Program-made: the position numbers and the translations under genes
Notes under the pieces: model-generated
The model's database searches: none
What the model was told of the DNA's origin: nothing
The model's input: only the letters and a program-made list of their open reading frames with translations
Shown here: piece by piece, positions 8,722-63,466 of the stretch
How positions within the stretch are numbered: the first letter of the stretch is position 1
Layout: each line of letters opens with the position of its first letter
Origin: Elusimicrobiota bacterium
Lineage (GTDB): Bacteria; Elusimicrobiota; Endomicrobiia; Endomicrobiales; Endomicrobiaceae
Length of the DNA: 64,000 nt
Assembly (NCBI GenBank): GCA_017528425.1
Contig: JAFXOV010000044.1
Span: 62,001 to 126,000, forward strand
Direction of reading: 5' to 3'

Positions 8722-9288
8722 TTAAAATGTAAATTTATATCCAACTTTCAATTGTAATGCCGAATATTTAAAATCATAAGTGGAAGGCTCACCTATAAAA
8801 GTTGCATTGCTGTTTGAATATAGAAGTTCAAAAACAAAATTTTCCTTTATTGTTGTTCCTACTCCTATTCCCCAATACAAGCCATTTGAATCTACTATAT
8901 CTTCATCAGCATCGGTTCTTAATATTCCATAACCAAGATGAACTAAAGGATAGATGTTATTAAATACATCATTTCCTGTTTCAAACACATATTTTGCTTG
9001 AGTATAGATGTTTGTCCATCCTATTTTCAAGCCATCGGATTTATCCATTTCGGAATTAAAAACATACTGAACACCGGCACCGATTGCCAACTGAGGCATT
9101 ACATAATAAAAGAAATCCACACCGGCTGTAAATGCAGGATCGACATCCGCATCATGGCCATCAATATCTCCGTTACCCATAACATTAAAACCTGCCTTAA
9201 TGTCCAACTCCATTGCTCCTTCATCTGCTGCAAATACAGGTGCTACAAGTGCTACTGCCAACAATACTGCCAAAACTACTTTTCTCAT
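8722..9288 (-). CDS. Small outer-membrane beta-barrel protein (paralogue of 36603 and 37344)
   Basis: This secreted 188-residue protein has a signal peptide (residues 1-20, ending APVFAADEG) and alternating polar/hydrophobic strands. It ends in KVGYKFTF, a C-terminal aromatic beta-signal for outer-membrane insertion. Short barrel repeats such as YPLVHLGYGILRTD and LYWGIGVGTT suggest an OmpW/OmpA-like eight-stranded barrel; no exact family is recognised. A strong AGGAGG precedes the ATG. It is closely similar along its length to the plus-strand tandem pair at 36.6 and 37.3 kb. It lies 29 bases after deoB, so it may be read through from deoB as well as ending in its own terminator. Confidence 0.8.
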   Translation of the reverse strand: MRKVVLAVLLAVALVAPVFAADEGAMELDIKAGFNVMGNGDIDGHDADVDPAFTAGVDFFYYVMPQLAIGAGVQYVFNSEMDKSDGLKIGWTNIYTQAKYVFETGNDVFNNIYPLVHLGYGILRTDADEDIVDSNGLYWGIGVGTTIKENFVFELLYSNSNATFIGEPSTYDFKYSALQLKVGYKFTF

Positions 9289-35984: not shown

Positions 35985-36294
35985 TATTTAACTCCTGCTC
36001 TATAGCGGTTTTAGGCCTGAATCCTACCATTTTGTTTATTGGTTTTCCGCCTTTAAATATTATAAGGCAAGGAATAGATGTTATTTGAAACTGTGATGAC
36101 AAAGACATATTTTCATCGGTATTAACTTTACCTACTTTTATTTTGCCGTCATATTCTTTTGCTATTTCATCTACTACAGGTAACAACATTTTGCAAGGTC
36201 CGCACCATGGAGCCCAAAAGTCGAGCAATACGGGAATATCCGATTTTACAACCTCCTGTTCAAAATTTGCTTCTGTTATAACTATTTCCGCCAT
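35974..36294 (-). CDS. trxA: Thioredoxin
   Basis: The 106 residues are a standard thioredoxin with active site [10 protein letters not shown] near 28-37 and the cis-proline loop [12 protein letters not shown] near 74. It is reduced by the TrxB encoded two genes downstream. GGAGGAATAAG precedes the ATG. It has a promoter immediately upstream. Confidence 0.97.
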
Positions 36295-36331
36295 CTTATT
36301 CCTCCATAAATTATTTTTTTGTATTAGTTAG

Positions 36332-36361
36332 ATTATACTAAAAACAATATAAAATTGCCAA
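36332..36361 (-). promoter_or_regulatory. Promoter of the trxA operon
   Basis: Minus strand TTGGCA (36356-36361), 18-base spacer, TATAAT (36332-36337), 37 bases before the trxA ATG. Confidence 0.55.
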
Positions 36362-36530
36362 AGACAATTTTACAATTAGAAATTAGTAATGAGAAATTAG
36401 AAATTAACGGCAACGACAAAATTGAGGTATGGATGTATGGAAGTATAGAGGTATGGAAACGACAACGGATGGATTGCCACGGGCTAAAGCCCTCGCAATG
36501 AACGGCAATTAGTAATTTAGGTATGTGTGA
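36362..36530. repeat. Repeat-filled intergenic region
   Basis: The gap between divergent trxA and the OMP gene (36295-36602) has no ORF of note. It carries an AATTAGAAATTAG tract (36374-36405), a GTATGGAAGTATAGAGGTATGG block (36424-36460) shared with 56423 and 60880, and the palindromic unit ATTGCCACGGGCTAAAGCCCTCGCAATGA (36472-36501). Confidence 0.75.
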
Positions 36531-36533
36531 ATA

Positions 36534-36562
36534 TTGATTTTTATATAAAATTATGCAATAAT
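36534..36562 (+). promoter_or_regulatory. Promoter of the first tandem OMP gene
   Basis: TTGATT (36534-36539), 17-base spacer, AATAAT (36557-36562). The same sequence with the same spacing recurs at 37277-37305 before the second copy, which supports function. Confidence 0.6.
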
Positions 36563-36602
36563 TTTGGGGTAGTTAAATTTAATTTAAGGAGAAAGAAAAC
36601 AA

Positions 36603-37172
36603 ATGAAAAAAGGATTGTTGGCTTTGTTGTTGGCAGTAGCTCTTGTAGCACCTGTTTTTGCAGCAGACGAAGGTACAATGGAATTGGACATTAAAGCAGG
36701 TTTTAACCTTATGTCCAGTGCAGAGGTTGAAAGTGAAAGCCAGGATATAGATCCTGCATTCACAGCCGGAGTAGATTTCTTTTATTATGTAATGCCTCAA
36801 TTGGCAATCGGTGCCGGTGTTCAATATGTTTTCAATTCTGAAGTAGCAGATTCTCATGGTATGAAAGCAGGTTGGACAAATCTTTATGCACAAGCAAAAT
36901 ATGTATTTGAAACAGGAAGCGATATTTTTAACAATGTTTATCCTTTAGTTCAAATCGGTTATGGAATTTTAAGAACAGATCCAGATGAAGATTTTATAGA
37001 TTCAAACGGATTATATTGGGGTATCGGTGCAGGAACAACAATAAACAAATGTATTGTTCTTGAACTTCTTTATTCAAATGGTAATGCAACACTTAAACTT
37101 GATCCTTGGACTACAGGAGATTTAAAGTATTCAACAATCCAATTGAAAGTTGGTTATAAATTTACTTTCTAA
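36603..37172 (+). CDS. Small outer-membrane beta-barrel protein, tandem copy 1
   Basis: The 189 residues have a signal peptide (1-20, APVFAADEG) and an amphipathic beta-strand mature part ending KVGYKFTF, an outer-membrane insertion signal. It is near identical in layout to the protein at 8722-9288 (shared PAFTAGVDFFYYVMPQLAIG and FNNVYPLV-like segments) and similar to the next gene. AAGGAGAAAG lies upstream of the ATG. It has its own promoter and terminator. The exact family is not recognised. Confidence 0.8.
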   Translation: MKKGLLALLLAVALVAPVFAADEGTMELDIKAGFNLMSSAEVESESQDIDPAFTAGVDFFYYVMPQLAIGAGVQYVFNSEVADSHGMKAGWTNLYAQAKYVFETGSDIFNNVYPLVQIGYGILRTDPDEDFIDSNGLYWGIGAGTTINKCIVLELLYSNGNATLKLDPWTTGDLKYSTIQLKVGYKFTF

Positions 37173-37191
37173 TTAATATAAAAAAACAATT

Positions 37192-37230
37192 AAAGCACAG
37201 GAAGAATTTTTCTTTCTGTGCTTTTTGTTT
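37192..37230 (+). terminator. Rho-independent terminator after OMP copy 1
   Basis: AAAGCACAG (37192-37200) pairs with CTGTGCTTT (37216-37224), extended by G-U pairs inside, and a T-rich run follows. Confidence 0.85.
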
Positions 37231-37276
37231 TTTATATAGGCGAAACGGCAATTAGTAATTTAGCTGTGTGTGAATA

Positions 37277-37305
37277 TTGATTTTAACATAAAATTATGCA
37301 ATAAT
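37277..37305 (+). promoter_or_regulatory. Promoter of the second tandem OMP gene
   Basis: TTGATT (37277-37282), 17 bases, AATAAT (37300-37305); the flanking bases (GTGTGAATA before, GGTAGTTAAATTT after) also match the copy at 36534. Confidence 0.6.
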
Positions 37306-37343
37306 TTTTCAGGTAGTTAAATTTTTGTATAAGGATAAAAAAA

Positions 37344-37919
37344 ATGAAAAAAAGTTTATTGGCTTTATTGTTGGCAGTAGCACTTGTAACACCTGTTTTT
37401 GCGACAGATAACAAGGTAGGTGAAATAGACGTTAAGGCAGGTTTTAATTTTATGTCTAATGTAACAGTTGATAATACTGATTATGATAAAAGTGTTGATT
37501 CTGCATTTGCAGCCGGTGCAGATTTATTCTTTTGTTTAACGCCCCAGTTAGCAATCGGTGCAGGTGTTGATTATATTTTCAATCATGAACTGCCAAATTT
37601 GGATGGTTTGAAAGCAGGTTGGACAAATATCTACGTACAGGCAAAATATATGTTTGAAACAGGAAATAATATTTTTAATAATGTTTATCCGTTATTTCAA
37701 ATAGGTGGAAGTATATTAAGGTTAGACACTGATTCTGAGACTGAAGTGGATTCAAACGGATTGTATTGGGCAATTGGTGCAGGTACAACAATAAAAGAAA
37801 ATTTTCTTCTTGAAATTCTTTATTCAAAATGTAATGCAAAAGTTAAAGAAGATTTCTTTAGAGGTGATTTAAAATATTCAACATTGCAGTTGAAAGTTGG
37901 ATATAAACTTCCCTTCTAA
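37344..37919 (+). CDS. Small outer-membrane beta-barrel protein, tandem copy 2
   Basis: The 191-residue paralogue has a signal peptide ending TPVFATDN and a mature barrel with the shared segments LAIGAGVDYIFNHE, FNNVYPLFQIGGSILRL and SNGLYWAIGAGTT, ending KVGYKLPF. It is more diverged than copy 1 is from the 8722 gene. It ends before a strong bidirectional terminator. The tandem arrangement with duplicated promoter indicates local duplication of about 740 bases. Confidence 0.8.
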   Translation: MKKSLLALLLAVALVTPVFATDNKVGEIDVKAGFNFMSNVTVDNTDYDKSVDSAFAAGADLFFCLTPQLAIGAGVDYIFNHELPNLDGLKAGWTNIYVQAKYMFETGNNIFNNVYPLFQIGGSILRLDTDSETEVDSNGLYWAIGAGTTIKENFLLEILYSKCNAKVKEDFFRGDLKYSTLQLKVGYKLPF

Positions 37920-37930
37920 TTAATATATTA

Positions 37931-37967
37931 TAAAAAAGCAGGGAGATATCTTCTCCCTGCTTTTTTT
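37931..37967. terminator. Bidirectional terminator
   Basis: A perfect 12-bp stem (AAAGCAGGGAGA, 37935-37946, with 37952-37963) is flanked by A-runs on the left and T-runs on the right. It can stop the plus-strand OMP transcript and the converging minus-strand Tad transcript. Confidence 0.9.
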
Positions 37968-37988
37968 ATTTTTTAATTACCAATTATT

Positions 37989-39113
37989 TTAGAGTGGTAC
38001 CAAGTGGGCATCCCAACCGCCGAGCTCGGCTTCGTTGTACTTATAAATCGGAGTTTCTTTATTTAACGGTTCGGTAATTATTTTTCTTGTTGCCTCTTCG
38101 GCATAATAGGCAGCTGCAGCTATACCGACCGCAGCACAAACTTGTCCTACAGCCGGAATATAAGCTACCGCTTGTATTATGTTATAAAAGACAAAAAGTT
38201 GTTGTGCTACCATAGGTGACAAAAGTGCTGCCGTAATATAAGATAAACCTGTACTTGTGTCTTCTTTTTCGGGAAACATAGGACCTTTAACATTATATAA
38301 TCCCGCAGCACCCAAACTATACAATACAGGCATATCAACATCAAAGACATTTTTGAATAACGGGTATCCGTCATTTTTTGAAGGAGTTTTTATTCCTATA
38401 CCTACCAACTTTTTATCATAAAAGTCCGTATCTTGAACATACCAAGACACATTATCTTTCATATATTGTCTGGGTATAACTATATGATAATGTTTTGCTT
38501 GAACATCGAGACAAAAATTCATTGTTTTATAATAAGTTATCCCTTTAGTATTTCTTTTTATACCTAACCAAACTTTCGGATCGGTTATATTAAAATTAAA
38601 CAAATTTGTTCCTTTGGCATATCTTGAAGGTATAACAAAAACTTTATAATCTTTATCGGGAATATTTTTCATTAACAGCGCCGATTGAACCATATAGTTT
38701 GTAAGTAAAAGATCTTGAAACTGTTGTATTGAATTTACAAGCTTTTTCATTTTCAATACACCGCTGTACCTTTCGTTTACGGCAACACCTGCTTTGGGAC
38801 AATAATAGTCGCAAAACGGACCGGGTATCATCGAACCGCCAACCTTATCGGTAGAAAAAGACGGAAACATTGCTATCATGGGGTACGATGCCGTAGATAA
38901 AACTGTTGCCATTAAACTGTTTGTTGCACCCAACAAATTTAATGTTCTTGCCTGCAAATTTGCAACGGATATTACCGTGTTGTCAACATAGTTTTGTAAT
39001 ATCATTTTATCTCTTAAAATTTTGGCAATATTTACCATCATTGCCCAACTGAATATAAGGATTAACGACATTACAAGCATATAAGGTAATACCTGACCTT
39101 TTCTATTGTTCAT
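37989..39113 (-). CDS. TadG/TadE-like pseudopilin or pilus-assembly protein
   Basis: Taking the ATG at 39113 (which overlaps the preceding stop by 11 bases) gives 374 residues beginning MNNRKGQVLPYMLVMSLILI, a short basic leader followed by a hydrophobic helix, as in TadE/TadG proteins. The remainder is a long exported domain with a second hydrophobic, Ala-rich stretch (VAYIPAVGQVCAAVGIAAAAYYA) near the C-terminus. Such proteins take part in type IVc (Tad/Flp) pilus assembly. No ATPase or prepilin peptidase is in the window. The frame stays open upstream to 39164. Confidence 0.6.
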   Translation of the reverse strand: MNNRKGQVLPYMLVMSLILIFSWAMMVNIAKILRDKMILQNYVDNTVISVANLQARTLNLLGATNSLMATVLSTASYPMIAMFPSFSTDKVGGSMIPGPFCDYYCPKAGVAVNERYSGVLKMKKLVNSIQQFQDLLLTNYMVQSALLMKNIPDKDYKVFVIPSRYAKGTNLFNFNITDPKVWLGIKRNTKGITYYKTMNFCLDVQAKHYHIVIPRQYMKDNVSWYVQDTDFYDKKLVGIGIKTPSKNDGYPLFKNVFDVDMPVLYSLGAAGLYNVKGPMFPEKEDTSTGLSYITAALLSPMVAQQLFVFYNIIQAVAYIPAVGQVCAAVGIAAAAYYAEEATRKIITEPLNKETPIYKYNEAELGGWDAHLVPL

Positions 39114-39597
39114 ATTCAGGAAACTCTTTTGCATCGGGATATGCCTTATTGTAAAATTCTTCATCGGGAGATTTTACCATTCTTGCCCTTGCAGACTGCT
39201 CTCTGTAAAACAAAGAATTGAAAAATTGCCCGAACATTATTCTTGTATTGTAACCGACTTTTACATTATGTTTATTTATTTTTTTGTTGCTGTGATCTAA
39301 AATTTTGTTGCCTAAAATATCTTCGTCCCAATGTGTGGTTTTATAATAAAATACACTCTTGGAACTTAACATATATGCCGTAAGAAGCTTTGATACTGTT
39401 TCTTTTGCGGTATCGGCAATTTCTTTATTTTTTGTTACAACTATTTTTCTTGTAGCCGAAAAAGCGCTGTAATTCAAAAACATATCGTCCGCAACAATAA
39501 TACAAACTTGTATTGCAGCAAACATTAAAACCGTTATTATACAGGCAATTATAAATCCTTCCAAAAAAGATTGTCCTTTATTGTTAAAACAAAACAT
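39103..39597 (-). CDS. TadE-like membrane protein
   Basis: The ATG at 39597 has GGGAG six bases upstream and gives 164 residues starting MFCFNNKGQSFLEGFIIACI. The NNKGQSxLE segment followed by a hydrophobic helix is a TadE-type N-terminus, with the conserved Glu at about 13. The mature part is exported and rich in Lys and Thr. It overlaps both neighbours: 14 bases with the pilin-like gene upstream and 11 with the TadG-like gene. Confidence 0.6.
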   Translation of the reverse strand: MFCFNNKGQSFLEGFIIACIITVLMFAAIQVCIIVADDMFLNYSAFSATRKIVVTKNKEIADTAKETVSKLLTAYMLSSKSVFYYKTTHWDEDILGNKILDHSNKKINKHNVKVGYNTRIMFGQFFNSLFYREQSARARMVKSPDEEFYNKAYPDAKEFPEYEQ

Positions 39598-39763
39598 TTG
39601 ATACTCCCGCAATAAAGGAAATAAAATCGAATTTATGTTTCCATGCAATAACAAAAAGTTTTACCATACCGTAACTTGCGGCAAACATAACAAGAGTAAA
39701 CAAAACATACTCTACCGCAGCTTGTCCCGATTTATTGTTTATGATATTTAGAATTGTTTTCAT
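39584..39763 (-). CDS. 59-residue Flp/TadE-like pilin candidate
   Basis: This short gene is easy to miss. It encodes 59 residues beginning MKTILNIINNKSGQAAVEYV, then a hydrophobic helix (LFTLVMFAASYGMVKLFVIA). The GQAAVEY motif is that of Flp and TadE pilins, where Glu-Tyr follows the prepilin cleavage point by four to six residues. The ATG overlaps the secretin-like gene stop (ATGA) and its own stop lies inside the next gene, so it is tightly coupled to both. It could be the major or a minor pilin; length favours Flp. Confidence 0.62.
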   Translation of the reverse strand: MKTILNIINNKSGQAAVEYVLFTLVMFAASYGMVKLFVIAWKHKFDFISFIAGVSNVLF

Positions 39764-40488
39764 TGTTCTATAATTTTCGGAGTAACAAAGATTAAAACAT
39801 TCGTTTTGTTATCTTTTACTTTTGTATTTTTGAACAATGTTCCGAGTAAAGGAATATCGGAAAGTATAGGAATACCCGAAGATGTTTTATCTTTATAATT
39901 TTCTATAAGACCCGCAATAACTATGGTTTGCTGATTTTTTAATATAACACTTGATCTTGCCTGCCTTTTGGCAATGTTCGGAAACCCCTGAACGGCATTT
40001 GCCCAATCGAGTCTTGAAAGTTCAGTTTCTATAACTAAATCTATTCTGTCCTCTTCCAAAATTTTCGGTAAAATTTCCATAATAATTCCGTACTCTTTCC
40101 ATTCTACATTACCGCCTGAAACACCCGATACTGCTATAGGAAATTCCCCTCCGACCAAAAATCTTGCTTTTGTTCCGGACTTTGTTACAAGTTTAGGATT
40201 GGATAATACTTGTGCCGAACCGCTTTCCTGTAAAAGTTTAAGTTTGGCACTTAACGGAGTGTATCTTACCCAATCGTTAAATTCCACAAGTGACGGATAA
40301 ACGGTGTTACCTTCACCGTTTGTAACAAAAAGTTCACCGGTAGAAATTTCATCCACCCACTTTATTCCGTACTCTTTGGCTTTGTTATTATTTATTTCGG
40401 TTATTTCTATGGATATTTCAACTAATTGTTCCGCAAATATAGCAGTAGAAATAAAAAGTAAAGTTATTAAGATAAAAAACTTCTTCAT
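39760..40488 (-). CDS. Short secretin-domain protein (RcpA/CpaC or GspD-like)
   Basis: The 242 residues have a signal peptide (1-19, IFAEQ) and the secretin homology region only: VEISIEITEINNNKAKEYGI, SAQVLSNPKLVTKSGTKARF, GEFPIAV, and the end motif GIPILSDIPLLGTLFKNTK. Full secretins are about 450-700 residues with N-terminal periplasmic domains, which are missing here. It may be a reduced outer-membrane channel for the pilin-like proteins encoded downstream. It begins directly after the gcvT stop. Confidence 0.82.
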   Translation of the reverse strand: MKKFFILITLLFISTAIFAEQLVEISIEITEINNNKAKEYGIKWVDEISTGELFVTNGEGNTVYPSLVEFNDWVRYTPLSAKLKLLQESGSAQVLSNPKLVTKSGTKARFLVGGEFPIAVSGVSGGNVEWKEYGIIMEILPKILEEDRIDLVIETELSRLDWANAVQGFPNIAKRQARSSVILKNQQTIVIAGLIENYKDKTSSGIPILSDIPLLGTLFKNTKVKDNKTNVLIFVTPKIIEQ

Positions 40489-41562
40489 TTATTTCTTTGC
40501 TCTTTTATAAAACGGTTTAGGAACAATTGTTATGTTTCTGAGATTGTTATGAACTTTTATTTGTATCGGCAAACTTTCGTCCGTTGAAACATCTATCAAT
40601 GCCATACCGATAGCTTTTTTAAATGTAGGTGAAAAACTTCCGCTTGTAACATAACCGATTTTTTTATCGTTCAAATAAACTTCATCGTGTGCTCTTGCTA
40701 TACCGTTTTGGCATATAAAAGCTACTAACTTTTTGGAAGGAGTATCTTTTATTTTTTCTATTTCGGATTTTCCTATAAAATCTTTATTCCAAAATACTGT
40801 TTTTATAAATCCCGCATCTATCGGATTAATTTCTTCGGATATTTCGTGACCGTGTAACGGCATACAAGCTTCAAGTCTTAATGTATCTCTGCAACCGAGA
40901 CCGCAGGGTTTTGCACCGAGTTCAACAAGTTTAGACCATATATATTCCGCACAGTTATTGGATATAAGAATTTCAAATCCGTCTTCACCGGTATAACCTG
41001 TTCTTGCTATCTTTGAGAAGTTTGCGGATTGACCTTTAAAAGAAATATCTTTCGCGGTAAAATATTTCATTGAAGCTATTTCTCCGTCAACTATTTGAGA
41101 AACAATTTCTACTGCTTTAGGGCCTTGAACGGCCATCATGGAAATTTCTTTGCTTATATTTTTTATATCCACATTATCCAATTTATTTTCGTTTAGCCAA
41201 GCGAAATCTTTATCTAAGTTTCCAGCATTTACCACCATCATGTAATAGTTTTCGAATTTATATACTATGATATCGTCTTTTATTCCGCCTTGTTTATTTA
41301 AAAGCATGGAATATCTTGCTTTATATAACGGCAAATTAGACATATCCGATATTGTTACATAATCCAAAAATTTACCTGCATTTTCTCCCGATATAATAAA
41401 TGTTCCCATGTGAGAAGTATCAAATATACCTACAGAATTTCTAACCGCATTATGTTCTTCTATAATAGAAGTATATTGAACCGGCATATCCCATCCGCCG
41501 AATTCGGTAAATTTTGCACCTGCTTTTTGGTGCATAGAATGTAAGAATGTTTCTTTTAACAT
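40489..41562 (-). CDS. gcvT: Glycine cleavage system T protein (aminomethyltransferase)
   Basis: The ATG at 41562 has AAAGGGGA just upstream and gives 357 residues starting MLKETFLHSMHQ. Motifs are FGGWDMPVQYTSIIEEHNAVR, FDTSHMG, MAVQGPKA, RTGYTGEDGFEIL and ACMPLHGHEI. It transfers the methylene of glycine to tetrahydrofolate and releases ammonia. lpdA follows upstream by 22 bases; gcvP and gcvH are not in the window. The frame upstream to 41604 has no start with a good Shine-Dalgarno. Confidence 0.93.
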   Translation of the reverse strand: MLKETFLHSMHQKAGAKFTEFGGWDMPVQYTSIIEEHNAVRNSVGIFDTSHMGTFIISGENAGKFLDYVTISDMSNLPLYKARYSMLLNKQGGIKDDIIVYKFENYYMMVVNAGNLDKDFAWLNENKLDNVDIKNISKEISMMAVQGPKAVEIVSQIVDGEIASMKYFTAKDISFKGQSANFSKIARTGYTGEDGFEILISNNCAEYIWSKLVELGAKPCGLGCRDTLRLEACMPLHGHEISEEINPIDAGFIKTVFWNKDFIGKSEIEKIKDTPSKKLVAFICQNGIARAHDEVYLNDKKIGYVTSGSFSPTFKKAIGMALIDVSTDESLPIQIKVHNNLRNITIVPKPFYKRAKK

Positions 41563-41584
41563 ACTGTCCCCTTTTATATAAAAA

Positions 41585-42868
41585 TTACTTTTTAATTGCT
41601 TCAAAAATCAGTTCGGAAAGTCCCGGATGGAAGAACATATCTTTCGATAAATCCGTAACTTTCATATCAGATTTTATTATCATTGTTGCAGACTCTATGA
41701 GTTCATCTGCATTTACACCTATTATCCAAACACCTATAACCTTTTTGGAAACATTATCTACGGCTACTTTTATCCAACCTGTTCTTTGTCCTTCTATTTG
41801 TGCTCTTGCATTTGAAATAAAAGTTGATTTTCCAAAGGAAACATCTTTATAACTGTCATAATCAACTGCTTTCACCGATGCTACGGGAGGAAACGAAAAA
41901 ACGACTTTCGGCACAGGATTTTTTGATTGTAAATTTTCGGCAACATTTATTGCATCCTGTTCGGCGGTATATGCCAAAAATCCTTTAGCGGTAATATCTC
42001 CTATAGCAAAAATATTATCTACATTTGTTGCATAATTTTGTGTTGATACAAATTTTCTGTTATCTAAATTTAAACCTATATTCTCCGGCTTTAGTTCATC
42101 GGCATTAGACTTTCTTCCCGCAACTATCAAGATTTTTTCAAAGCTGTCTTTATCTTTTAATGTATCGGTACAAGAAACTTCAACTTTTATTCCCTGTCTT
42201 GCCAACACTTTTGAAAGTTCTTGTGCCAAATCGCTGTCTTCACTGGGTAAAATCTGCGGACAAATTTCTCTTAAAGTAACTTTACAACCGAAACTTGCAA
42301 ATATGGAACTTAACTCTATACCGATTGCTCCTGCACCTATAACAAGCATACTTTTGGGAACTTCCGTTAAGTTTAAAGCATCGGTAGAATCGATATATTT
42401 TTGATGATCGTATTCAACGGTTGGAATTGATTTGGTTTCCGAACCCGTTGCAATAATTATTTTGTCTGCAAATATACTTATTTCTTCCGTTTCTGTTTTA
42501 ACATTAAGCTCGTTTTTATTTTTAAAACTTGCCGTTCCTTTTATAATATCAACTTTGTTTGCGGTAAGTAATCTTGATACACCTTTAACTAAATTTTCAA
42601 CTAATCTGTTTTTTTTATTTATTATTTCCTGAAAATTTACAGGTTCCAAGGAAGATTTTAAGCCATACTCATAAGATTTTGATATTGTTTGTTTTACCGA
42701 TGCTGCCTGCCACAAAAACTTTGTTGGAATACAACCTCTGTTTAAACAAGTACCACCCAAATTATCTTTTTCGATTATTACAACCTTTTTACCTTGTTTA
42801 GCAAAATTTATTGCACAATTGTATCCTGCAGGTCCCGCACCTATAACGGCTATATCGTATTTTTCCAT
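41585..42868 (-). CDS. lpdA: Dihydrolipoamide dehydrogenase
   Basis: The 427-residue flavoprotein starts MEKYDIAVIGAGPAGYN. The redox disulfide is GGTCLNRGCIPTK near 38-50; the NAD motif VIGAGAIGIELSSIFASFG and C-terminal HPGLSELIFEA with the catalytic His are present. It serves the glycine cleavage system (gcvT lies downstream) or a 2-oxoacid dehydrogenase. A length of about 430 is on the short side for Lpd. The frame continues to 42913 without a good start. Confidence 0.93.
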   Translation of the reverse strand: MEKYDIAVIGAGPAGYNCAINFAKQGKKVVIIEKDNLGGTCLNRGCIPTKFLWQAASVKQTISKSYEYGLKSSLEPVNFQEIINKKNRLVENLVKGVSRLLTANKVDIIKGTASFKNKNELNVKTETEEISIFADKIIIATGSETKSIPTVEYDHQKYIDSTDALNLTEVPKSMLVIGAGAIGIELSSIFASFGCKVTLREICPQILPSEDSDLAQELSKVLARQGIKVEVSCTDTLKDKDSFEKILIVAGRKSNADELKPENIGLNLDNRKFVSTQNYATNVDNIFAIGDITAKGFLAYTAEQDAINVAENLQSKNPVPKVVFSFPPVASVKAVDYDSYKDVSFGKSTFISNARAQIEGQRTGWIKVAVDNVSKKVIGVWIIGVNADELIESATMIIKSDMKVTDLSKDMFFHPGLSELIFEAIKK

Positions 42869-42905
42869 GATTAAATTCCAATTAATAAAATTAACAAGTA
42901 AATAT

Positions 42906-44055
42906 TTTACCAAATTATGAGATTTTTAGATATAGAACTGATTTCGGGTATATCAATATTTTTTTGGAAGATTCAACAATTATCCGAATTTATAATCTCA
43001 CTATACTAGATTGAAATTGGTACAATATCACTAAATATAGTGGCAATTTCAAATATACTACCATATAGCTTTTTAATTTCTAAAAACTATATTTCAGGTA
43101 TTTTTATGTCACGTTTGTAAGTCAATTTATGAATAAAACTTTTTTCACAGGCTTTCTTAAAATCCGCATTAGATATTTTTTTCACCTTTTCAGCCTTACT
43201 TAAAATAATATGTATATTTCCATCGTTTTCATTCAGAGAGTAACCATAATATAATTTTTTGAAATCCCTATCATTTTCAAGCAAAGCAATAAACAAATAA
43301 TGATGTACAAAGTAATTCAAAGAAAAATTTTCATTTTTCCAGTATTCTGTTATTGCTGCCTCCCATTTTGAAATGAGTTGATTGTACTGTTTTGAATAAA
43401 TAAAGCAATTATTTATAAAAGTCTTCGCAAATTTTCCAACACTCCTATAAATAAAAAAATCTGAATTATAAATATATCTTGGCAATTGAGAAGTTAGTAA
43501 GCAAGTTGCATCCAGCCAAAAACCACCATATTGTTTAAGTAAATAAACTCTTATAATGTCTGAAAAATGTGCATTGCCAATTATGTTTTTTCTATGTTTC
43601 TCCATTATAAACTCTGGCAATGAAAGATAATTATTTAAGTTATCGTATGTAATAACCTTAACTTCAAAATCTTTCGGCTTATTTTTTCTAAAGGATTGAA
43701 AACATTTTTTTACCAGTTCCGGAGCATTATCTTCACCCTGAAGCCAACATGTCCAAATATAGTTTCCACATTTGCAATCTTTTTTTTCTAATTCAATACC
43801 TTTTGCATACCGACTTAAATATTTTACACAACGTTCCCTGTTAACTGGTGAAATTTTATCGCGAAAAGAATCCCTTGCGGACTTGTTCCAAAACACCAAC
43901 GAAGATAATAAATTAGCACATAGTTTCGTTACATTTAATGCAATTTTATTCATTTTTTTAAAAAATACTTTTTTAAGTGATTAGAAAAACTATTTTATAA
44001 CCTGTCTTTATCGTAATGCTGGTTATTTTACTAAATTATGAGATATTTTGATATA
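42906..44055. repeat. 30-base direct repeats flanking the glycosyltransferase gene
   Basis: TTTTACCAAATTATGAGATT... at 42906-42935 and its counterpart at 44026-44055 agree at 27 of 30 bases. They bracket the whole 43087-43953 gene. Each copy also lies upstream of a minus-strand gene (lpdA and the glycosyltransferase), so a shared promoter element is the alternative to an insertion scar. Confidence 0.65.
43087..43953 (-). CDS. Capsular-polysaccharide-type glycosyltransferase (Caps_synth/GT32-like)
   Basis: The 288 residues show NYIWTCWLQGEDNAPELVKKC, a middle GNAHFSDIIRVYLLKQYGGFWLDATCLL (the GGxWLD sugar-nucleotide/metal motif) and a His-rich end. This is the pattern of the capsular synthesis proteins related to GT32 enzymes. 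It would add a sugar to a surface glycan. There is no clear Shine-Dalgarno before the ATG. The gene is AT-rich even for this region and is bracketed by 30-base direct repeats, suggesting recent acquisition. It follows the ATP-grasp gene of the peptide operon. Confidence 0.8.
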   Translation of the reverse strand: MNKIALNVTKLCANLLSSLVFWNKSARDSFRDKISPVNRERCVKYLSRYAKGIELEKKDCKCGNYIWTCWLQGEDNAPELVKKCFQSFRKNKPKDFEVKVITYDNLNNYLSLPEFIMEKHRKNIIGNAHFSDIIRVYLLKQYGGFWLDATCLLTSQLPRYIYNSDFFIYRSVGKFAKTFINNCFIYSKQYNQLISKWEAAITEYWKNENFSLNYFVHHYLFIALLENDRDFKKLYYGYSLNENDGNIHIILSKAEKVKKISNADFKKACEKSFIHKLTYKRDIKIPEI

Positions 44056-56555: not shown

Positions 56556-57485
56556 TTAATTGAATCTAAACGACAATGCTATAAAATGTGAACCGTAACT
56601 CTCTTCTATTTCAAAAGGTAATTCAAACGCATAATCTACTATCAAGGTGGCTTCGTTTGCAAACACAAATTCATACCCGAAACCGATATTAACTGCTTCT
56701 TCTCTGCCGCCTAATCTTATTCCCAACTTATCGTCCAACACATAACTTTCCAAACCTAACCTAAACTTTGTTTCACCGTCTATAAGTATTAAATCCAAAT
56801 CGGCGGTAAATGTAGGTATGTTAACATACGGCAACAACTCACTGAAATATCCGATACCAAATACTGTCATGTTTTTAACGGAATCTTTTTCTTCGTAACC
56901 CATATCGGGTGACGTTAAATATTTGCTGCTGAAACCTAACCTTAACCCGTTCTCAAAGGTTGCAAGTAAACCGATATCGCAGGTTACGGCACCTTTACTG
57001 TCGGAAAGGTCTTTATCTTCTTCATCAAAGTTTATTTCCTGTCTTAAATACTTTAAGTTCAAACCGGCAGACAACATTACAAACTCTTCGTCCACTTCCA
57101 ACAAGTCGTTAACTTTTCTTGCGTAACCTAAATTAAATGTATCGTATCTTGCAAGGGCGGGTGTCCCGAGTGACGACCATGCAAACGATACTGATCCCCA
57201 CTCTTCCGTTACAGGATACACGGCACCCAAATAATTTGCTGCTATTTCCACACCGTCGAGCCCTGCAAACAGCCTTGAACCCATTAAGGTTATTTCTTTT
57301 TGTCCGCAGTTTGCTATACCTGCAATATTATATAAAGGAGCATTAGCATCGTTTGCTACGGCGGTAAATGCTCCGCCCATACCCAATGCTCTTACACCCC
57401 AATAGGTATCTTCAAAAGCCGCATATACCTGTTGGCTCATTGCAACAATTATGGTTAATAATAATACCGCTAAAAACTTTTTCAA
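56556..57485 (-). CDS. PorV/PorQ-like outer-membrane protein, module 1
   Basis: The 309 residues use a TTG start at 57485 with GGAG eight bases upstream. After the signal peptide (QVYAAFED) comes WGVRALGMGGAFTAVANDANAPLYN, the opening of PorV/PorQ and UPF0164-like barrels, where GMGGAFTAVAxD is diagnostic. The rest is a long beta-barrel ending IALSFRFN. PorV-type proteins receive exported cargo at the outer membrane in type IX secretion. The paralogue at 61185 is similar along the whole length. Confidence 0.8.
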   Translation of the reverse strand: MKKFLAVLLLTIIVAMSQQVYAAFEDTYWGVRALGMGGAFTAVANDANAPLYNIAGIANCGQKEITLMGSRLFAGLDGVEIAANYLGAVYPVTEEWGSVSFAWSSLGTPALARYDTFNLGYARKVNDLLEVDEEFVMLSAGLNLKYLRQEINFDEEDKDLSDSKGAVTCDIGLLATFENGLRLGFSSKYLTSPDMGYEEKDSVKNMTVFGIGYFSELLPYVNIPTFTADLDLILIDGETKFRLGLESYVLDDKLGIRLGGREEAVNIGFGYEFVFANEATLIVDYAFELPFEIEESYGSHFIALSFRFN

Positions 57486-57716
57486 AAAATACTCCGTATT
57501 TTCAATTAGTAATTAGTAATTAGCAATTAGTAATTTCGGTGTGCCTACGGCACTAATTTTTTATAGATTCTGAATCAAGTTCAGAATGACAACTACGAGA
57601 TCCCGTATCAAGTACGGGATGACACCCTGTCTTTTTGTCATTGCGAGGCGACTTTGTCGCCGTGGCAATCTATTTTCTATAGATTACTTCGCTTCGCTCG
57701 TAATGACGACCTTCCG
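57486..57716. repeat. Repeat cluster between FlgD-tail gene and PorV-like gene (module 1)
   Basis: An AATTAGTAATTAG tract (57504-57535) is followed by TGTGCCTACGGCACTAATTTTTTATAG, then four palindromic units: AGATTCTGAATCAAGTTCAGAATGAC, AGATCCCGTATCAAGTACGGGATGAC, GTCATTGCGAGGCGACTTTGTCGCC..GGCAATCTA and TAGATTACTTCGCTTCGCTCGTAATGAC. No gene is seen. Confidence 0.8.
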
Positions 57717-58874
57717 CTACCAAACAAATGCTATCGTTCCGCTGATAACCTTACCGCCTTTCAACTTAATCTGGTACACATAAGTGCCGCTGGATGCCCA
57801 ATCACCGCTGTTGTTGGTACCTTTCCTACCTTTCCATTCAAAGCCGTCCGCATTGCCGACGGTAAGTTCGGCAACCTTTTTACCGCTAATGGTGTATATC
57901 TTAACAACATCGCCGTCTTTCAATCCCTTGAACATGAATCCGCCGTAAGTTGAAATTCTCGATTTTACTCTTACTCTGTTCTTTGGTCTGTAACTCTTAT
58001 CTTCTTCTTTCGCCTTTTCAAATATACCGTAATATCCTAAACTGCTGATGTTTGCTATAACGGTTTTATTTTGTAAATCCGTTTTGGTTATAGGAATACT
58101 GCTCCAACTGTCCGAATCGTTTTGTTTATACTTTAAAACGAAATCGGTAGATGTCGGGTTAACACCGTAATAAAAAGTTGCTTTTATCGGTGATAATATT
58201 TCTATGTTTGCAGGGATAGAATAAACCTGATACAATGCCGCCATCTGTTCCGTGGACGAAATATAATCTTCCACACCTAACTGTTTTATTATTATTTGTG
58301 CATCGGTGCTTAACGAGTTCGGTGCAATTTCAAGTTTGGTGCTGTCGTACTGTTGGTTACCCGAACCAAATTCCACAACACCGCCAACAGATGCTGTAAC
58401 ATCTTTTGTTATAGTATCTGTAAGTTCGGCATGTTGAGGTTGTGTTCCCGAAGGGAAAGTGACAGTTTTAATAATTGTTCCCTGCTCGTCACGGAAATCT
58501 ACAACTATTTGGTAATCTACATTTGTGGAAGATTCCAAAAATGTCGGCAACTGTATAAAAAATTCTTCGTTGTTTTTGATGGTTATTCCTTCACCCGGCG
58601 GTTCCTGCTCAACAGAGCCGCCGTCAACGGAATAATCTATTCTTGCCGTTGCATTAGCATTTGAATAACTGCCAAAATCTACAGATATTTTTGCATTTAG
58701 TATTTTATCTATCGACGATACCGTTTCTATTGCCGTATGAGTTATTTTAGGAAGAATAACACCGCCGAAACTTGCAAATGCAGACAATACCCTTAATGGT
58801 TCTGCTGCATAAAGATACACAGAAACACCAAGCAAAACTATTAAAGATAATAGACCTGCGATTCTTTTTTTCAT
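57717..58874 (-). CDS. Secreted surface protein with FlgD/Ig-type C-terminal tail, module 1
   Basis: The 385 residues have a signal anchor or signal peptide (1-24, YLYAAEP), two or three beta-rich domains (about 30-290), and a C-terminal 80-residue tail (IYTISGKKVAEL, WKGRKGTNNSGDWASSGTYVYQIK, ending SGTIAFVW) that matches the FlgD Ig-like / outer-membrane sorting-domain pattern. The tail end GTIAFVW is the same as in the paralogue at 62273. It lies between the surface proteins at 58935 and 59787 and the PorV-like gene. It is probably cell-surface cargo. Confidence 0.75.
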   Translation of the reverse strand: MKKRIAGLLSLIVLLGVSVYLYAAEPLRVLSAFASFGGVILPKITHTAIETVSSIDKILNAKISVDFGSYSNANATARIDYSVDGGSVEQEPPGEGITIKNNEEFFIQLPTFLESSTNVDYQIVVDFRDEQGTIIKTVTFPSGTQPQHAELTDTITKDVTASVGGVVEFGSGNQQYDSTKLEIAPNSLSTDAQIIIKQLGVEDYISSTEQMAALYQVYSIPANIEILSPIKATFYYGVNPTSTDFVLKYKQNDSDSWSSIPITKTDLQNKTVIANISSLGYYGIFEKAKEEDKSYRPKNRVRVKSRISTYGGFMFKGLKDGDVVKIYTISGKKVAELTVGNADGFEWKGRKGTNNSGDWASSGTYVYQIKLKGGKVISGTIAFVW

Positions 58875-61184: not shown

Positions 61185-62111
61185 TTAGAAGCGGAATGAA
61201 AGTGCTATAAAGTGAGAGCCATAAGACTCTTCCAATTCCAACGGAAGTTCAAACGCATAATCCACAATCAATTTTGTTTCGTTTGCGAACGCAAACTCAT
61301 ATCCGAAACCGATATCAAAAGCTTCTTCTCTACCGCCAAGTCTTATTGCAAGTTTTCTATCCAAAATATAACTTTCTACACCGGCTCTTATAAATGTTTC
61401 GCTGTCTCTAAACATTACATCTAAAGCTGCCGTAAAGTAAGGTATTTTTATTAAAGGTAACTCATCACTGTAATAACTTAAACCTACAACATTTATATTT
61501 TTTACTTCATCTTTTTCCATAAATCCGATATCTGCAGGAACGATATATTTGCTGCTGAAACCTACACCGATACCGTTTGCAAACATTGCTAAAATGCCGA
61601 TATCACCGGTTGCAGCACCTTTATAAGTTTCAAATTCTGTTTCTTCCACACCAAACTTAACTTCCTGCATTAAATACTTGAAATTAACACCGGCGCTTAA
61701 TTCAACAACTTCTTTGTCTAATCTTAATATATCGTTCAATACTCTTGCATAACCGATATTGAACGTATCTTCTCTTCTTAACCCCGGTGTTGATATGGAA
61801 GACCATGCAAACGATATTGTTCCGATATTGGCGCTTATGGGATGAACATACCCTGCATAGTTTGCACCGATTTCCACGCCTTCAAGACCTGCAAAGAGTC
61901 TTGATCCCATCAACGTTACTTCTTTTTGTGCGGCAAATGCCGTACCTGCAACGTTGTATAAAGGTGCGTTAGCATCGTTGGAAACGGCAGTAAATGCTCC
62001 GCCCATACCCAATGCTCTTACACCCCAATAGGTATCGTCAAAAGCTGCAAACACAGTTTGTGCCGATACTGACATTATTAAGAGTAATGAAAACAACAAT
62101 ATTTTTTTCAT
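61185..62111 (-). CDS. PorV/PorQ-like outer-membrane protein, module 2
   Basis: Taking the ATG at 62111 gives 308 residues with a signal peptide (1-24, TVFAAFDD) and WGVRALGMGGAFTAVSNDANAPLYN. The barrel continues to IALSFRF. It is closely similar to the protein at 56556 (for example RLGGREEAFDIGFGYEFAFANE versus the matching region there). No good Shine-Dalgarno is seen; a TTG at 62135 is in frame. It lies downstream of a second FlgD-tail gene, as in module 1. Confidence 0.8.
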   Translation of the reverse strand: MKKILLFSLLLIMSVSAQTVFAAFDDTYWGVRALGMGGAFTAVSNDANAPLYNVAGTAFAAQKEVTLMGSRLFAGLEGVEIGANYAGYVHPISANIGTISFAWSSISTPGLRREDTFNIGYARVLNDILRLDKEVVELSAGVNFKYLMQEVKFGVEETEFETYKGAATGDIGILAMFANGIGVGFSSKYIVPADIGFMEKDEVKNINVVGLSYYSDELPLIKIPYFTAALDVMFRDSETFIRAGVESYILDRKLAIRLGGREEAFDIGFGYEFAFANETKLIVDYAFELPLELEESYGSHFIALSFRF

Positions 62112-62135
62112 AAAATTTTTTAATTTAAAACTCAA

Positions 62136-62272
62136 CTACAATTAGTAATTTTTGTGTGCCTAAGGCACTAATTTTTTATAGATTGCCACACTTCGTTCGC
62201 AATGACAAGCAAAAAAGAACTAATTTTTTATAGATTCCGGATCAAGTCCGGAATGACAACTATTTCAAAAAA
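62136..62272. repeat. Repeat cluster between FlgD-tail gene and PorV-like gene (module 2)
   Basis: TGTGCCTAAGGCACTAATTTTTTATAG (62154-62180) continues into AGATTGCCACACTTCGTTCGCAATGAC. A second ACTAATTTTTTATAG with AGATTCCGGATCAAGTCCGGAATGAC ends at 62260. The same lead block is present at 57540 in module 1. Confidence 0.8.
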
Positions 62273-63466
62273 CTACCAAACGAAAGCGATTGTTCCGCTT
62301 ATAACGTCTCCGCCGCTCTTCAACTTAATTTGGTAAATATATGTTCCGCTTTCCGCCCAATCACCGTTATCTTTTCTACCGTCCCAAATGGTAGGATCGG
62401 AACCGTCTGCGGATATCTTTCTTACTTTTCTGCCTTTCAAATTGTATATTGTTATACTGTCACCCTGTTGCAAATACTTAAATTCAAATCCGGGATATGT
62501 GCTGCCTATTTTACCTTTTACAACTATTCTGTTGTCCGGTCTGTAACTTGAATTATTTAAGTTAATACTTTCAATAACTCTGTAAGCACCCAACTTTGCC
62601 GCAACAAAAGAGTATATTTGGTTAGTTTTATCTACAGACAAGTTTGCACCTGCGGCAGTTTCCCAATCAAACCCGTTTTCATATTGCATACTGAACTTGT
62701 TTGCACTTGTTTCGTTTTGCAAAGGAAGATTTTTTATTTGTATAGGACTTTCAATTTCCGATAATCCTTCAACTTCAACGGAAGCCGTTGAAATTACGTT
62801 TTCTCTTGTGGAACCCGAACCGGAACCCTGTGACGAAGAATCCGTATCGTCAAGGAAGTTGACCGTAACTTTATGTTCACCGCTGTAAGCTCCCGCAGGA
62901 ACCGTAACGGTTACATAACCGTTATCCCCTTCTTTAGATTGGTCTCCGCAGAAAACTTTTTTCTGCCCGCCTTCGGATCCGTTAATGGTTTCTTCTATTA
63001 CACTTACAACGTTTGCGGTAACAAACGTTTCCGAAGATGCATCTACCGGAGTATAAAGGATATAATCTCCGTCTTCGGTAGCAAACGTAACTTTAATTCT
63101 GTATTCTATAATTTGATTATCTTTTGTTATTGCACCTTTTTCCGTGCCGATATAAAAAGCTCTTTTGTTAGGAACAGCATCTTTTGTTACTTCAACAACT
63201 TCGCCGGAATCCAACTTATATTCCAAAACTGCATTTGCGGCACTTGCTTCACCGAAATTTGCAAGAACTTTTGCATTCAATATTCCGCCTGCCAAAACAG
63301 TTTCTATCTGCTCGTGTTCCACTATAGGATCTATAAAAGTAAAATTAACTTCGGATGTTATTGTTTTTACCGTTTCGGTTGAAGCGGCATAAACATTAAC
63401 CAATCCGAGCGATACCAACAAAGCGGATACTATTAAGATTGAAAAATTTTTAAAAACTCTTTCCAT
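62273..63466 (-). CDS. Secreted surface protein with FlgD/Ig-type C-terminal tail, module 2
   Basis: The 397 residues start with a signal peptide (1-27, VNVYAAS), pass through beta-rich domains (ILNAKVLANFGEASAANAVLEY near 65) and end in the same tail as the 57717 protein (IYNLKGRKVRKI, WDGRKDNGDWAESGTYIYQIKLK, SGTIAFVW). A low-complexity Ser/Gly stretch (DSSSQGSGSGS) lies near 230. The start overlaps the upstream gene by 34 bases. It is a probable surface cargo protein paired with the PorV-like barrel downstream. Confidence 0.75.
   Translation of the reverse strand: MERVFKNFSILIVSALLVSLGLVNVYAASTETVKTITSEVNFTFIDPIVEHEQIETVLAGGILNAKVLANFGEASAANAVLEYKLDSGEVVEVTKDAVPNKRAFYIGTEKGAITKDNQIIEYRIKVTFATEDGDYILYTPVDASSETFVTANVVSVIEETINGSEGGQKKVFCGDQSKEGDNGYVTVTVPAGAYSGEHKVTVNFLDDTDSSSQGSGSGSTRENVISTASVEVEGLSEIESPIQIKNLPLQNETSANKFSMQYENGFDWETAAGANLSVDKTNQIYSFVAAKLGAYRVIESINLNNSSYRPDNRIVVKGKIGSTYPGFEFKYLQQGDSITIYNLKGRKVRKISADGSDPTIWDGRKDNGDWAESGTYIYQIKLKSGGDVISGTIAFVW

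What the first reader, a model, noticed from the sequence alone, without database searches (positions are those of the whole stretch)
37989..40488. Minimal Tad/Flp-like cluster with a hidden 59-residue pilin gene
Four genes overlap in series: a secretin homology domain only (242 residues), a 59-residue GQAAVEY pilin-like protein, a TadE-like and a TadG-like protein. The classical assembly ATPase (TadA), TadB/C and prepilin peptidase are missing here. A reduced outer-membrane ring together with pseudopilins could be a split locus or a stripped-down secretion device.
Basis: partly seen in the sequence, partly recalled or inferred. Interest (0 to 1): 0.6.

Follow-up and report, generated by a model that had tools for sequence, protein, structure and literature searches.

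The report
Scattered Tad pilus, bare-barrel secretin
These four genes are the outer part of a surface-fibre (Tad pilus) machine whose motor genes sit elsewhere in the same rumen bacterium, and its exit pore is cut down to a bare barrel, a trait found wherever it was looked for in this bacterial phylum.

Summary
Four overlapping minus-strand genes (40488-37989) encode a 242-aa secretin, a 59-aa class III pilin, and TadE-like and TadG-like proteins, under purifying selection. The split-locus reading is right: the same genome carries TadE1-Flp-CpaB-TadZA-TadB-TadC on contig C38 without a secretin, and one prepilin peptidase on C34. In 76 family genomes the short secretin and TadZA occur or are absent together (44 both, 4+2 single, 26 neither); they share one contig in L086 and, outside the family, in L136, L240, L241, L242. 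The 'stripped-down device' reading fails for the machine but holds for the secretin: only the RcpA barrel is left (residues 20-242 on RcpA 131-372, Z 14.4), without the N-domain that binds RcpC or the pilotin-binding tail. This is not local decay: 58 of 58 measured Tad-type secretins across Elusimicrobiota lack the N-domain, against 0 of 42 outside. The CpaB C-terminal hairpin motif is absent too (0 of 41, against 18 of 26). Both halves of the known inner-to-outer-membrane joint are missing; the replacement coupling is open.

The parts
39760..40488 (-). SecS: Tad-type secretin of 242 aa, Sec signal peptide directly followed by the secretin barrel; no N-domain, no C-terminal pilotin tail
   Evidence: PF00263 E 6e-46; model pLDDT 74; residues 20-242 align with RcpA 131-372, Z 14.4, rmsd 6.3, 157 aligned; best sequence hits in PDB include RcpA 8odn
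39584..39763 (-). 59-aa class III prepilin (minor or second pilin), GQAAVEY after a short basic leader; overlaps SecS by 4 nt
   Evidence: 16 sequences aligned, invariant Q14, E18, L21, W41
39103..39597 (-). TadE2: TadE-like minor pilin, 164 aa, start ATG at 39597
37989..39134 (-). TadG-like protein, 381 aa, start ATG at 39134 (an in-frame ATG at 39113 is possible); long N-terminal helix, conserved GGWxAHLVP end
   Evidence: model of the 380 residues after the start, pLDDT 84, no PDB fold match at E<=0.001
37932..37966 (.). Symmetric terminator-like hairpin (15 pairs) between TadG and a convergent outer-membrane protein gene
   Evidence: 3 such sites found, 3.0 expected, so only suggestive
40489..41604 (-). 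gcvT-like gene directly upstream; neighbour that probably shares the transcript, not part of the machine
   Evidence: gcvT lies upstream of the island in 15 of 20 relatives' loci

Best explanation
The four genes are the outer-membrane and pilin/minor-pilin module of one dispersed Tad (type IVc) pilus machine. The motor and alignment module (TadE1, Flp, CpaB/RcpC, TadZ-TadA, TadB, TadC) is on contig C38 of the same genome, and the single PilD-type peptidase on C34 probably processes the prepilins. SecS forms the outer-membrane ring through which the Flp fibre leaves; the 59-aa pilin, TadE2 and TadG would be minor pilins or tip/initiation subunits. The secretin is a bare barrel: the N-domain that RcpC/CpaB grips in Pseudomonas and the C-terminal residues that the TadD pilotin grips are absent, and CpaB lacks its matching C-terminal hairpin motif. 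So in Elusimicrobiota the inner and outer membrane parts must be coupled in another way: CpaB meeting the barrel base directly (in Endomicrobiia perhaps through its conserved helical tail), an unrecognised adaptor, or only loosely through the fibre. Shown by sequence: the gene sets, linkage, co-occurrence and the paired loss. Inferred: that one pilus uses both halves, the roles of the minor pilins, peptidase sharing, and any coupling.
For: Motor module on C38 with Pfam matches T2SSE 6.5e-62, two T2SSF, RcpC 3e-17, Flp_Fap 1.5e-7 (just under its cut-off), TadE 6.6e-9, and no secretin in 20 of 20 relatives' motor loci. Co-occurrence 44/4/2/26 of 76, Fisher 5.7e-14, not corrected for descent. Joint decay in G022, G040 and G043 (in G040 the secretin frame is intact while TadE2, TadG and TadZA are in pieces). 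One contig carries SecS-pilin-TadE2-TadG-TadD-TadE1-Flp-CpaB-TadZA-TadB-TadC in L086; SecS and CpaB-TadZA are together in L136, L240, L241, L242 and in the compact operons L230-L235, L244, L245, L247, L260-L266. Of the 44 genomes with both halves, 22 have no PilQ match, so the motor cannot depend on PilQ there. At most one prepilin peptidase per genome, found in 57 of 76. N-domain loss in 44 of 44 plus 14 of 14 loci against 0 of 42; hairpin motif 0 of 41 against 18 of 26; N-domain profile absent from 9 Elusimicrobiota genomes but found in 4 of 4 controls, two of them not in the profile. Published joint: RcpA N-domain binds RcpC (PMC12307814, sections 8, 9, 11 read); RcpA C-terminus binds TadD (PMC10499894, sections 9 and 11 read).
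Against: No experiment on these proteins was seen. Six of 76 genomes have only one half (four secretin only, two TadZA only; mostly fragmented or incomplete drafts). Co-occurrence partly reflects shared descent and genome reduction. The window genome is a 64-contig draft with 4.69% estimated contamination, though genus mates with 1% show the same split. In Endomicrobiaceae the CpaB tail is not short (51-56 residues after D2, inside the outside range of 35-99); only its sequence differs, so the paired loss is cleanest in the other Elusimicrobiota (15-20 residues). The hairpin is judged from a regular expression, which also misses 8 of 26 outside. The SecS model is middling (pLDDT 74) and no ring was modelled. 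A trans-acting N-domain too divergent for the profile is not excluded.
Confidence: 0.82

Rival explanations
1. A decayed or degenerate copy of a Tad locus: the secretin lost its N-terminus by decay and the island is on its way out.
For: True decay of this island exists in relatives G043, G040 and G022.
Against: dN/dS 0.05-0.29 in all 12 pairs tested; the short secretin is kept in 48 of 76 family genomes, two of them with one in-frame stop; the same short form is in 24 measured loci of 13 other families and in L136.
Confidence: 0.03
2. A separate, self-standing mini secretion device made of SecS plus pseudopilins, independent of the C38 Tad motor (possibly driven by the type IV pilus PilB/PilC).
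For: Different contigs, own pilin and TadE copies; some other Elusimicrobiota have a second short TadA-like ATPase (349-405 aa) right after SecS, so the outer module may once have had a motor of its own.
Against: No ATPase or platform protein accompanies the island in this family; strong co-occurrence with TadZA; the motor loci have no other secretin; 22 of 44 genomes with both halves show no PilQ match.
Confidence: 0.1
3. The N-domain is not lost but supplied in trans by an unrecognised periplasmic protein, like CpaI in Caulobacter.
For: CpaI is a stand-alone RcpA-N-like protein proposed to bridge CpaB and the secretin (PMC13170226, passages read). Compact Elusimicrobiota operons fuse a roughly 240-370-residue N-terminal part to TadB.
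Against: An N-domain profile finds nothing in 9 Elusimicrobiota genomes (best E 0.04) while 4 of 4 controls score 1e-20 to 1e-50. CpaB has also lost the motif that would bind such a domain.
Confidence: 0.3

Closest known systems
Tad/Flp (type IVc) pilus of Pseudomonas and Caulobacter (RcpA/CpaC, RcpC/CpaB, TadA/CpaF, TadB/C, TadE/F/G, TadD, Flp)
   Same: Motor, platform, alignment protein, Flp pilin, TadE/G-like proteins and secretin barrel all present
   Different: Genes scattered over at least two contigs; no own prepilin peptidase; secretin without N-domain and C-terminal tail; CpaB without the hairpin motif; TadZ-like part probably fused to TadA
Tad locus of Endomicrobium and Elusimicrobium minutum reported in PMC8809381 (section 10 and passages read)
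   Same: Same family of loci; that paper already notes Tad-like regions in E. proavitum, E. minutum and symbionts, and pseudogenes in Rs-D17
   Different: The text I read says nothing of the secretin's domains, of the split, or of the phylum-wide pattern; its supplements were not read
RcpA of P. aeruginosa (8odn)
   Same: Barrel fold, Z 14.4 over 157 residues
   Different: RcpA has N-domain 28-112, a linker, and a C-terminus to 416 that binds TadD (PMC10499894); SecS has neither
Filamentous phage pIV secretin (7ofh)
   Same: Barrel fold, Z 15.4
   Different: Phage export, no Tad genes; deposited chain sequence of 414 aa, with N-terminal domains (recalled)
Caulobacter CpaI
   Same: Precedent for a separate N-domain-like bridging protein (PMC13170226, passages read)
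   Different: No such protein recognised here

Membership tests
Tad/Flp pilus system | TadA/CpaF-type ATPase | tested here: met
   C38, T2SSE 6.5e-62 in a 630-aa protein
Tad/Flp pilus system | Two platform proteins TadB and TadC | tested here: met
   Two adjacent T2SSF proteins on C38
Tad/Flp pilus system | Flp pilin and TadE-type minor pilins | tested here: met
   Flp_Fap 1.5e-7 (31.6 bits, cut-off 32.2) and TadE 6.6e-9 on C38
Tad/Flp pilus system | RcpC/CpaB alignment protein | tested here: met
   PF16976 3.2e-17
Tad/Flp pilus system | Secretin of Tad type | tested here: met
   Relatives outside the phylum are secretins beside TadA-type genes; RcpA barrel match
Tad/Flp pilus system | Own prepilin peptidase (TadV/FppA) | tested here: not met
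   Single PilD-type A24 enzyme on C34; at most one in each of 76 genomes. Exchange of peptidases between systems is noted in PMC6668835 (passage read), so I do not treat this as disqualifying
Tad/Flp pilus system | TadD pilotin | tested here: inconclusive
   Only a 591-aa protein with a C-terminal TPR part on C31 matches TadD-like TPR parts
Tad/Flp pilus system | TadZ | tested here: inconclusive
   Own TadZA N-terminal part has no relevant Pfam match; its relative in L260 matches CbiA/AAA_31
RcpA/CpaC secretin (full architecture) | N-terminal domain (PF13629 T2SS-T3SS_pil_N) | tested here: not met
   Absent in SecS and in 4 of 4 other Elusimicrobiota secretins scanned; present in 6 of 6 outside secretins. 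So SecS is a derived relative, not a standard RcpA
RcpA/CpaC secretin (full architecture) | C-terminal pilotin-binding tail | tested here: not met
   0-4 residues after the core in 44 Elusimicrobiota loci; median 36, range 1-200, in 42 outside loci
Type IVa pilus/T2SS secretin (PilQ/GspD) | STN and Secretin_N domains | tested here: not met
   Absent in SecS; present in the C38 PilQ

The most novel reading that the evidence does not exclude
The whole phylum Elusimicrobiota builds Tad pili with a secretin reduced to its barrel and a CpaB without its docking hairpin: the joint known to tie the inner-membrane cage to the outer-membrane pore has been removed on both sides. The pilus either crosses an unbridged periplasm or uses a new coupling, for instance CpaB seated directly on the barrel base through its Endomicrobiia-specific helical tail, or a periplasmic domain fused to TadB in the other classes. 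A pore that assembles without the known pilotin tail would be among the smallest cellular pilus secretins.
Probability: 0.5. Interest if true: 0.75.

Novelty: new variant of a known kind. Interest (0 to 1): 0.6.

Why it matters
Tad machines were recently explained as a continuous channel in which the secretin N-domain and the CpaB/RcpC hairpin hold the two membranes together. A phylum that lacks both sides of that contact, in loci that look intact and (in the window's genus) are under purifying selection, is a natural experiment on whether the bridge is needed at all. It also gives a very small secretin (about 222 mature residues) for asking what a pilus pore minimally requires, and a case of a usually one-locus system that is scattered yet kept across a family.

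Tried and rejected
Pfam and NCBIfam on the window's own pilin, TadE2 and TadG gave nothing relevant. Foldseek and VIA-align on the TadG model gave no meaningful match: no hit at E<=0.001, best Z 7.2 over 58 helical residues. Rfam on 36000-44000: none. TadD search: the TPR query of L086 finds proteins with frames of about 590 aa in most Tad-bearing genomes; the same type lies directly upstream of SecS in L242 and L249 and is 32-34% identical over full length to the one on C31, so it may be a third fragment of the locus, but I do not claim it. Considered and rejected: an assembly break as the cause of the split. The island lies in the interior of its contig, and in single-contig G047 the halves are about 183 kb apart. 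Paper searches for Tad or pili together with Endomicrobia, Elusimicrobia or Elusimicrobiota, for Elusimicrobium minutum with pilus, for Endomicrobi with genome reduction/pili/flagellates, and for truncated or minimal secretins listed no paper whose title or abstract describes the N-domain loss; open-licence full texts only, and I read passages of six papers, not the rest of the lists. PMC11257099 has no hit for pili, pilus, Tad or secretin (whole-word find).

Rows dropped before counts: L236, L237 and L239 were left out of the secretin counts as non-Tad (L236's next gene has an MshEN domain; L237 and L239 judged by similarity of gene order and length; all three have 59-89 residues before the core); L160 (contig edge) and L093 (decayed) gave no measurement; CpaB was measurable in 26 of 43 outside loci. 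The 14 long-frame loci were chosen because their reported frames looked long; all 14 show a signal-peptide-like stretch next to the core (judged by eye). Loci in other families were taken from the top of the listing, not at random.

Full report
Observation. On the minus strand at 40488-37989 four genes overlap head to tail: a 242-aa secretin (here SecS), a 59-aa pilin with GQAAVEY, a TadE-like protein (start ATG 39597) and a TadG-like protein (start ATG 39134). SecS matches only the secretin domain (PF00263, residues 86-241, E 6e-46). Overlaps are 4, 14 and 32 nt, and SecS abuts a gcvT-like gene. Nei-Gojobori-style counts against three relatives give dN/dS 0.05-0.29 for all 12 gene pairs.

Where it comes from. 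The window is part of a 2.08 Mb, 64-contig draft. One genus mate's contig (35,454 bp, G067:C10) has the length and match of the record 'Candidatus Ruminimicrobiellum ovillum', so I place the window in or next to that rumen genus of Endomicrobiaceae, phylum Elusimicrobiota; this is inference from a contig length and identity.

The rest of the machine. In the same genome, contig C38 carries TadE1, Flp, CpaB, a 630-aa TadA-type ATPase with an N-terminal extension, TadB and TadC in one run after serS. No secretin is among them. The only other secretin found in the genome is a 425-aa protein with STN and Secretin_N domains in a cluster with pilM, a PilQ. The only prepilin peptidase found is a PilD-type enzyme on C34 near a PilT-like ATPase. 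Across the family no genome has more than one peptidase match (57 of 76 have one).

Linkage of the two halves. SecS at E<=1e-50 is in 48 of 76 family genomes and TadZA at E<=1e-100 in 46 of 76; both 44, SecS only 4 (G040, G053, G066, G070), TadZA only 2 (G028, G059), neither 26 (my count; Fisher 5.7e-14, not corrected for descent). Among the 31 genomes at least 90% complete and at most 5% contaminated the counts are 27, 1, 0, 3. In G043 and G022 both halves are broken, and in G040 TadZA, TadE2 and TadG are broken. The four-gene island is complete in 16 of 20 loci fetched, with gcvT upstream in 15 of 20. The motor set is complete in 19 of 20 loci, and no SecS match is in any of the 20. In G058 one contig (L086) carries SecS-pilin-TadE2-TadG-TadD-TadE1-Flp-CpaB-TadZA-TadB-TadC; that genome has a second SecS island elsewhere. 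Outside the family, L136, L240, L241 and L242 carry SecS and motor genes in one locus. Of the 44 genomes with both halves, 22 show no PilQ match, so PilQ cannot be the general exit pore for the C38-type motor. An assembly break does not explain the split: G047 is a single contig and its halves lie about 183 kb apart.

The bare barrel. The SecS model (pLDDT 74) aligns over residues 20-242 with RcpA 131-372 (Z 14.4, rmsd 6.3, 157 aligned). Residue 20 is where the signal peptide (IFA/EQ, judged by eye) ends. RcpA's N-domain is residues 28-112 and residues 412-416 bind the TadD pilotin (PMC10499894, sections 9 and 11 read); RcpC binds the RcpA N-domain, and its C-terminal hairpin is needed for function in cells (PMC12307814, sections 8, 9, 11 read). 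SecS has neither part.

It is phylum-wide as far as sampled. In 340 Elusimicrobiota genomes a profile of SecS has matches in 305 (this includes PilQ-type secretins, and the listing was cut). I measured the residues before the core in 19 family loci (20-36), 25 loci of other Elusimicrobiota (24 from 13 other families, plus L136; 20-57), and 42 outside loci (104-448). Fourteen further loci whose reported frame looked long all have a signal-peptide-like stretch directly before the core, and all lie beside CpaB and TadZA. PF13629, the pilus N-terminal family, is in 6 of 6 outside secretins scanned and 0 of 4 other Elusimicrobiota secretins. An N-domain profile found nothing in nine Elusimicrobiota genomes (best 0.04) and scored 1e-20 to 1e-50 in four control genomes, two of which were not in the profile. 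After D2, CpaB has 15-20 residues in 16 of 20 other Elusimicrobiota, 51-52 in the four Endomicrobiia-type ones and 51-56 in 21 family loci, against 35-99 in 26 outside. The outside tails often end in a strand such as VEIYRG followed by a short second strand; the pattern [VIL]x[VIT]x[RS]G is in 18 of 26 outside and 0 of 41 Elusimicrobiota. The family's own tail instead ends in a conserved KEALEIINKYS-like stretch that looks helical (by eye). So length is not reduced in the window's own family; the motif is what is missing.

History. The compact arrangement in the other Elusimicrobiota is Flp/pilin, TadE, CpaB, SecS, TadZA, TadB, TadC, TadD. L260 lies on a 1,643,562-bp contig, the size I recall for Elusimicrobium minutum; PMC8809381 (section 10 read) already names a Tad-like region there and in Endomicrobium. 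Several Endomicrobiia-type loci carry SecS, pilin, TadE2, TadG, TadE1, Flp, CpaB and TadZA together, and some loci have a second TadA-like ATPase of 349-405 aa right after SecS. The simplest path is: N-domain lost in or before the phylum ancestor, outer module rearranged in Endomicrobiia, then moved behind gcvT in Endomicrobiaceae. I built no tree. Tad systems are usually one-locus and often transferred (PMC6668835, passages read), so this scattered and widely kept case is unusual.

Verdict. A real, functional-looking split Tad locus (most likely), whose secretin and CpaB show a phylum-wide change at the known trans-periplasmic joint. The machine belongs to a known kind; the joint is a new variant. 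How the coupling works is not resolved here.

Noticed in passing
L242:4518-5567, L249:10504-11562, L238:8455-9522, L248:9394-10611, L144:7272-8339: A second, short TadA-like ATPase (349-405 aa, without the TadZ-like part; P-loop intact by eye in the four read out) directly or closely after the bare secretin; possibly a dedicated retraction motor. Absent from the window's genome.
   Followed up: partly
L260:4986-6593 and similar TadB genes in L230-L233, L244, L245, L247, L261-L266: TadB carries an extra N-terminal part of roughly 240-370 residues, in L260 starting with what looks like a signal peptide; a candidate new periplasmic link.
   Followed up: no
L200:7734-9509 (own contig C31): 591-aa protein, N-terminal part beta-rich and barrel-like by eye, C-terminal TPR part related to TadD-like proteins; its relatives sit directly upstream of SecS in L242 and L249.
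   Followed up: partly
G020:C1:24480-25178 and G021:C69:3694-4392: Short secretin with one in-frame TAA in two genomes that keep TadZA.
   Followed up: no
window 56556-58874 and 61185-63466: Two similar pairs of a roughly 310-aa outer-membrane-protein-like gene and a 385-397-aa protein with a shared C-terminal end (SGTYVYQIKLKGG or close), a tandem arrangement.
   Followed up: no
window 8722-9288, 36603-37172, 37344-37919; L200:1866-2441: A repeated family of small outer-membrane-barrel-like proteins (188-191 aa; 62-63% identical to the 37344 copy within the window).
   Followed up: no
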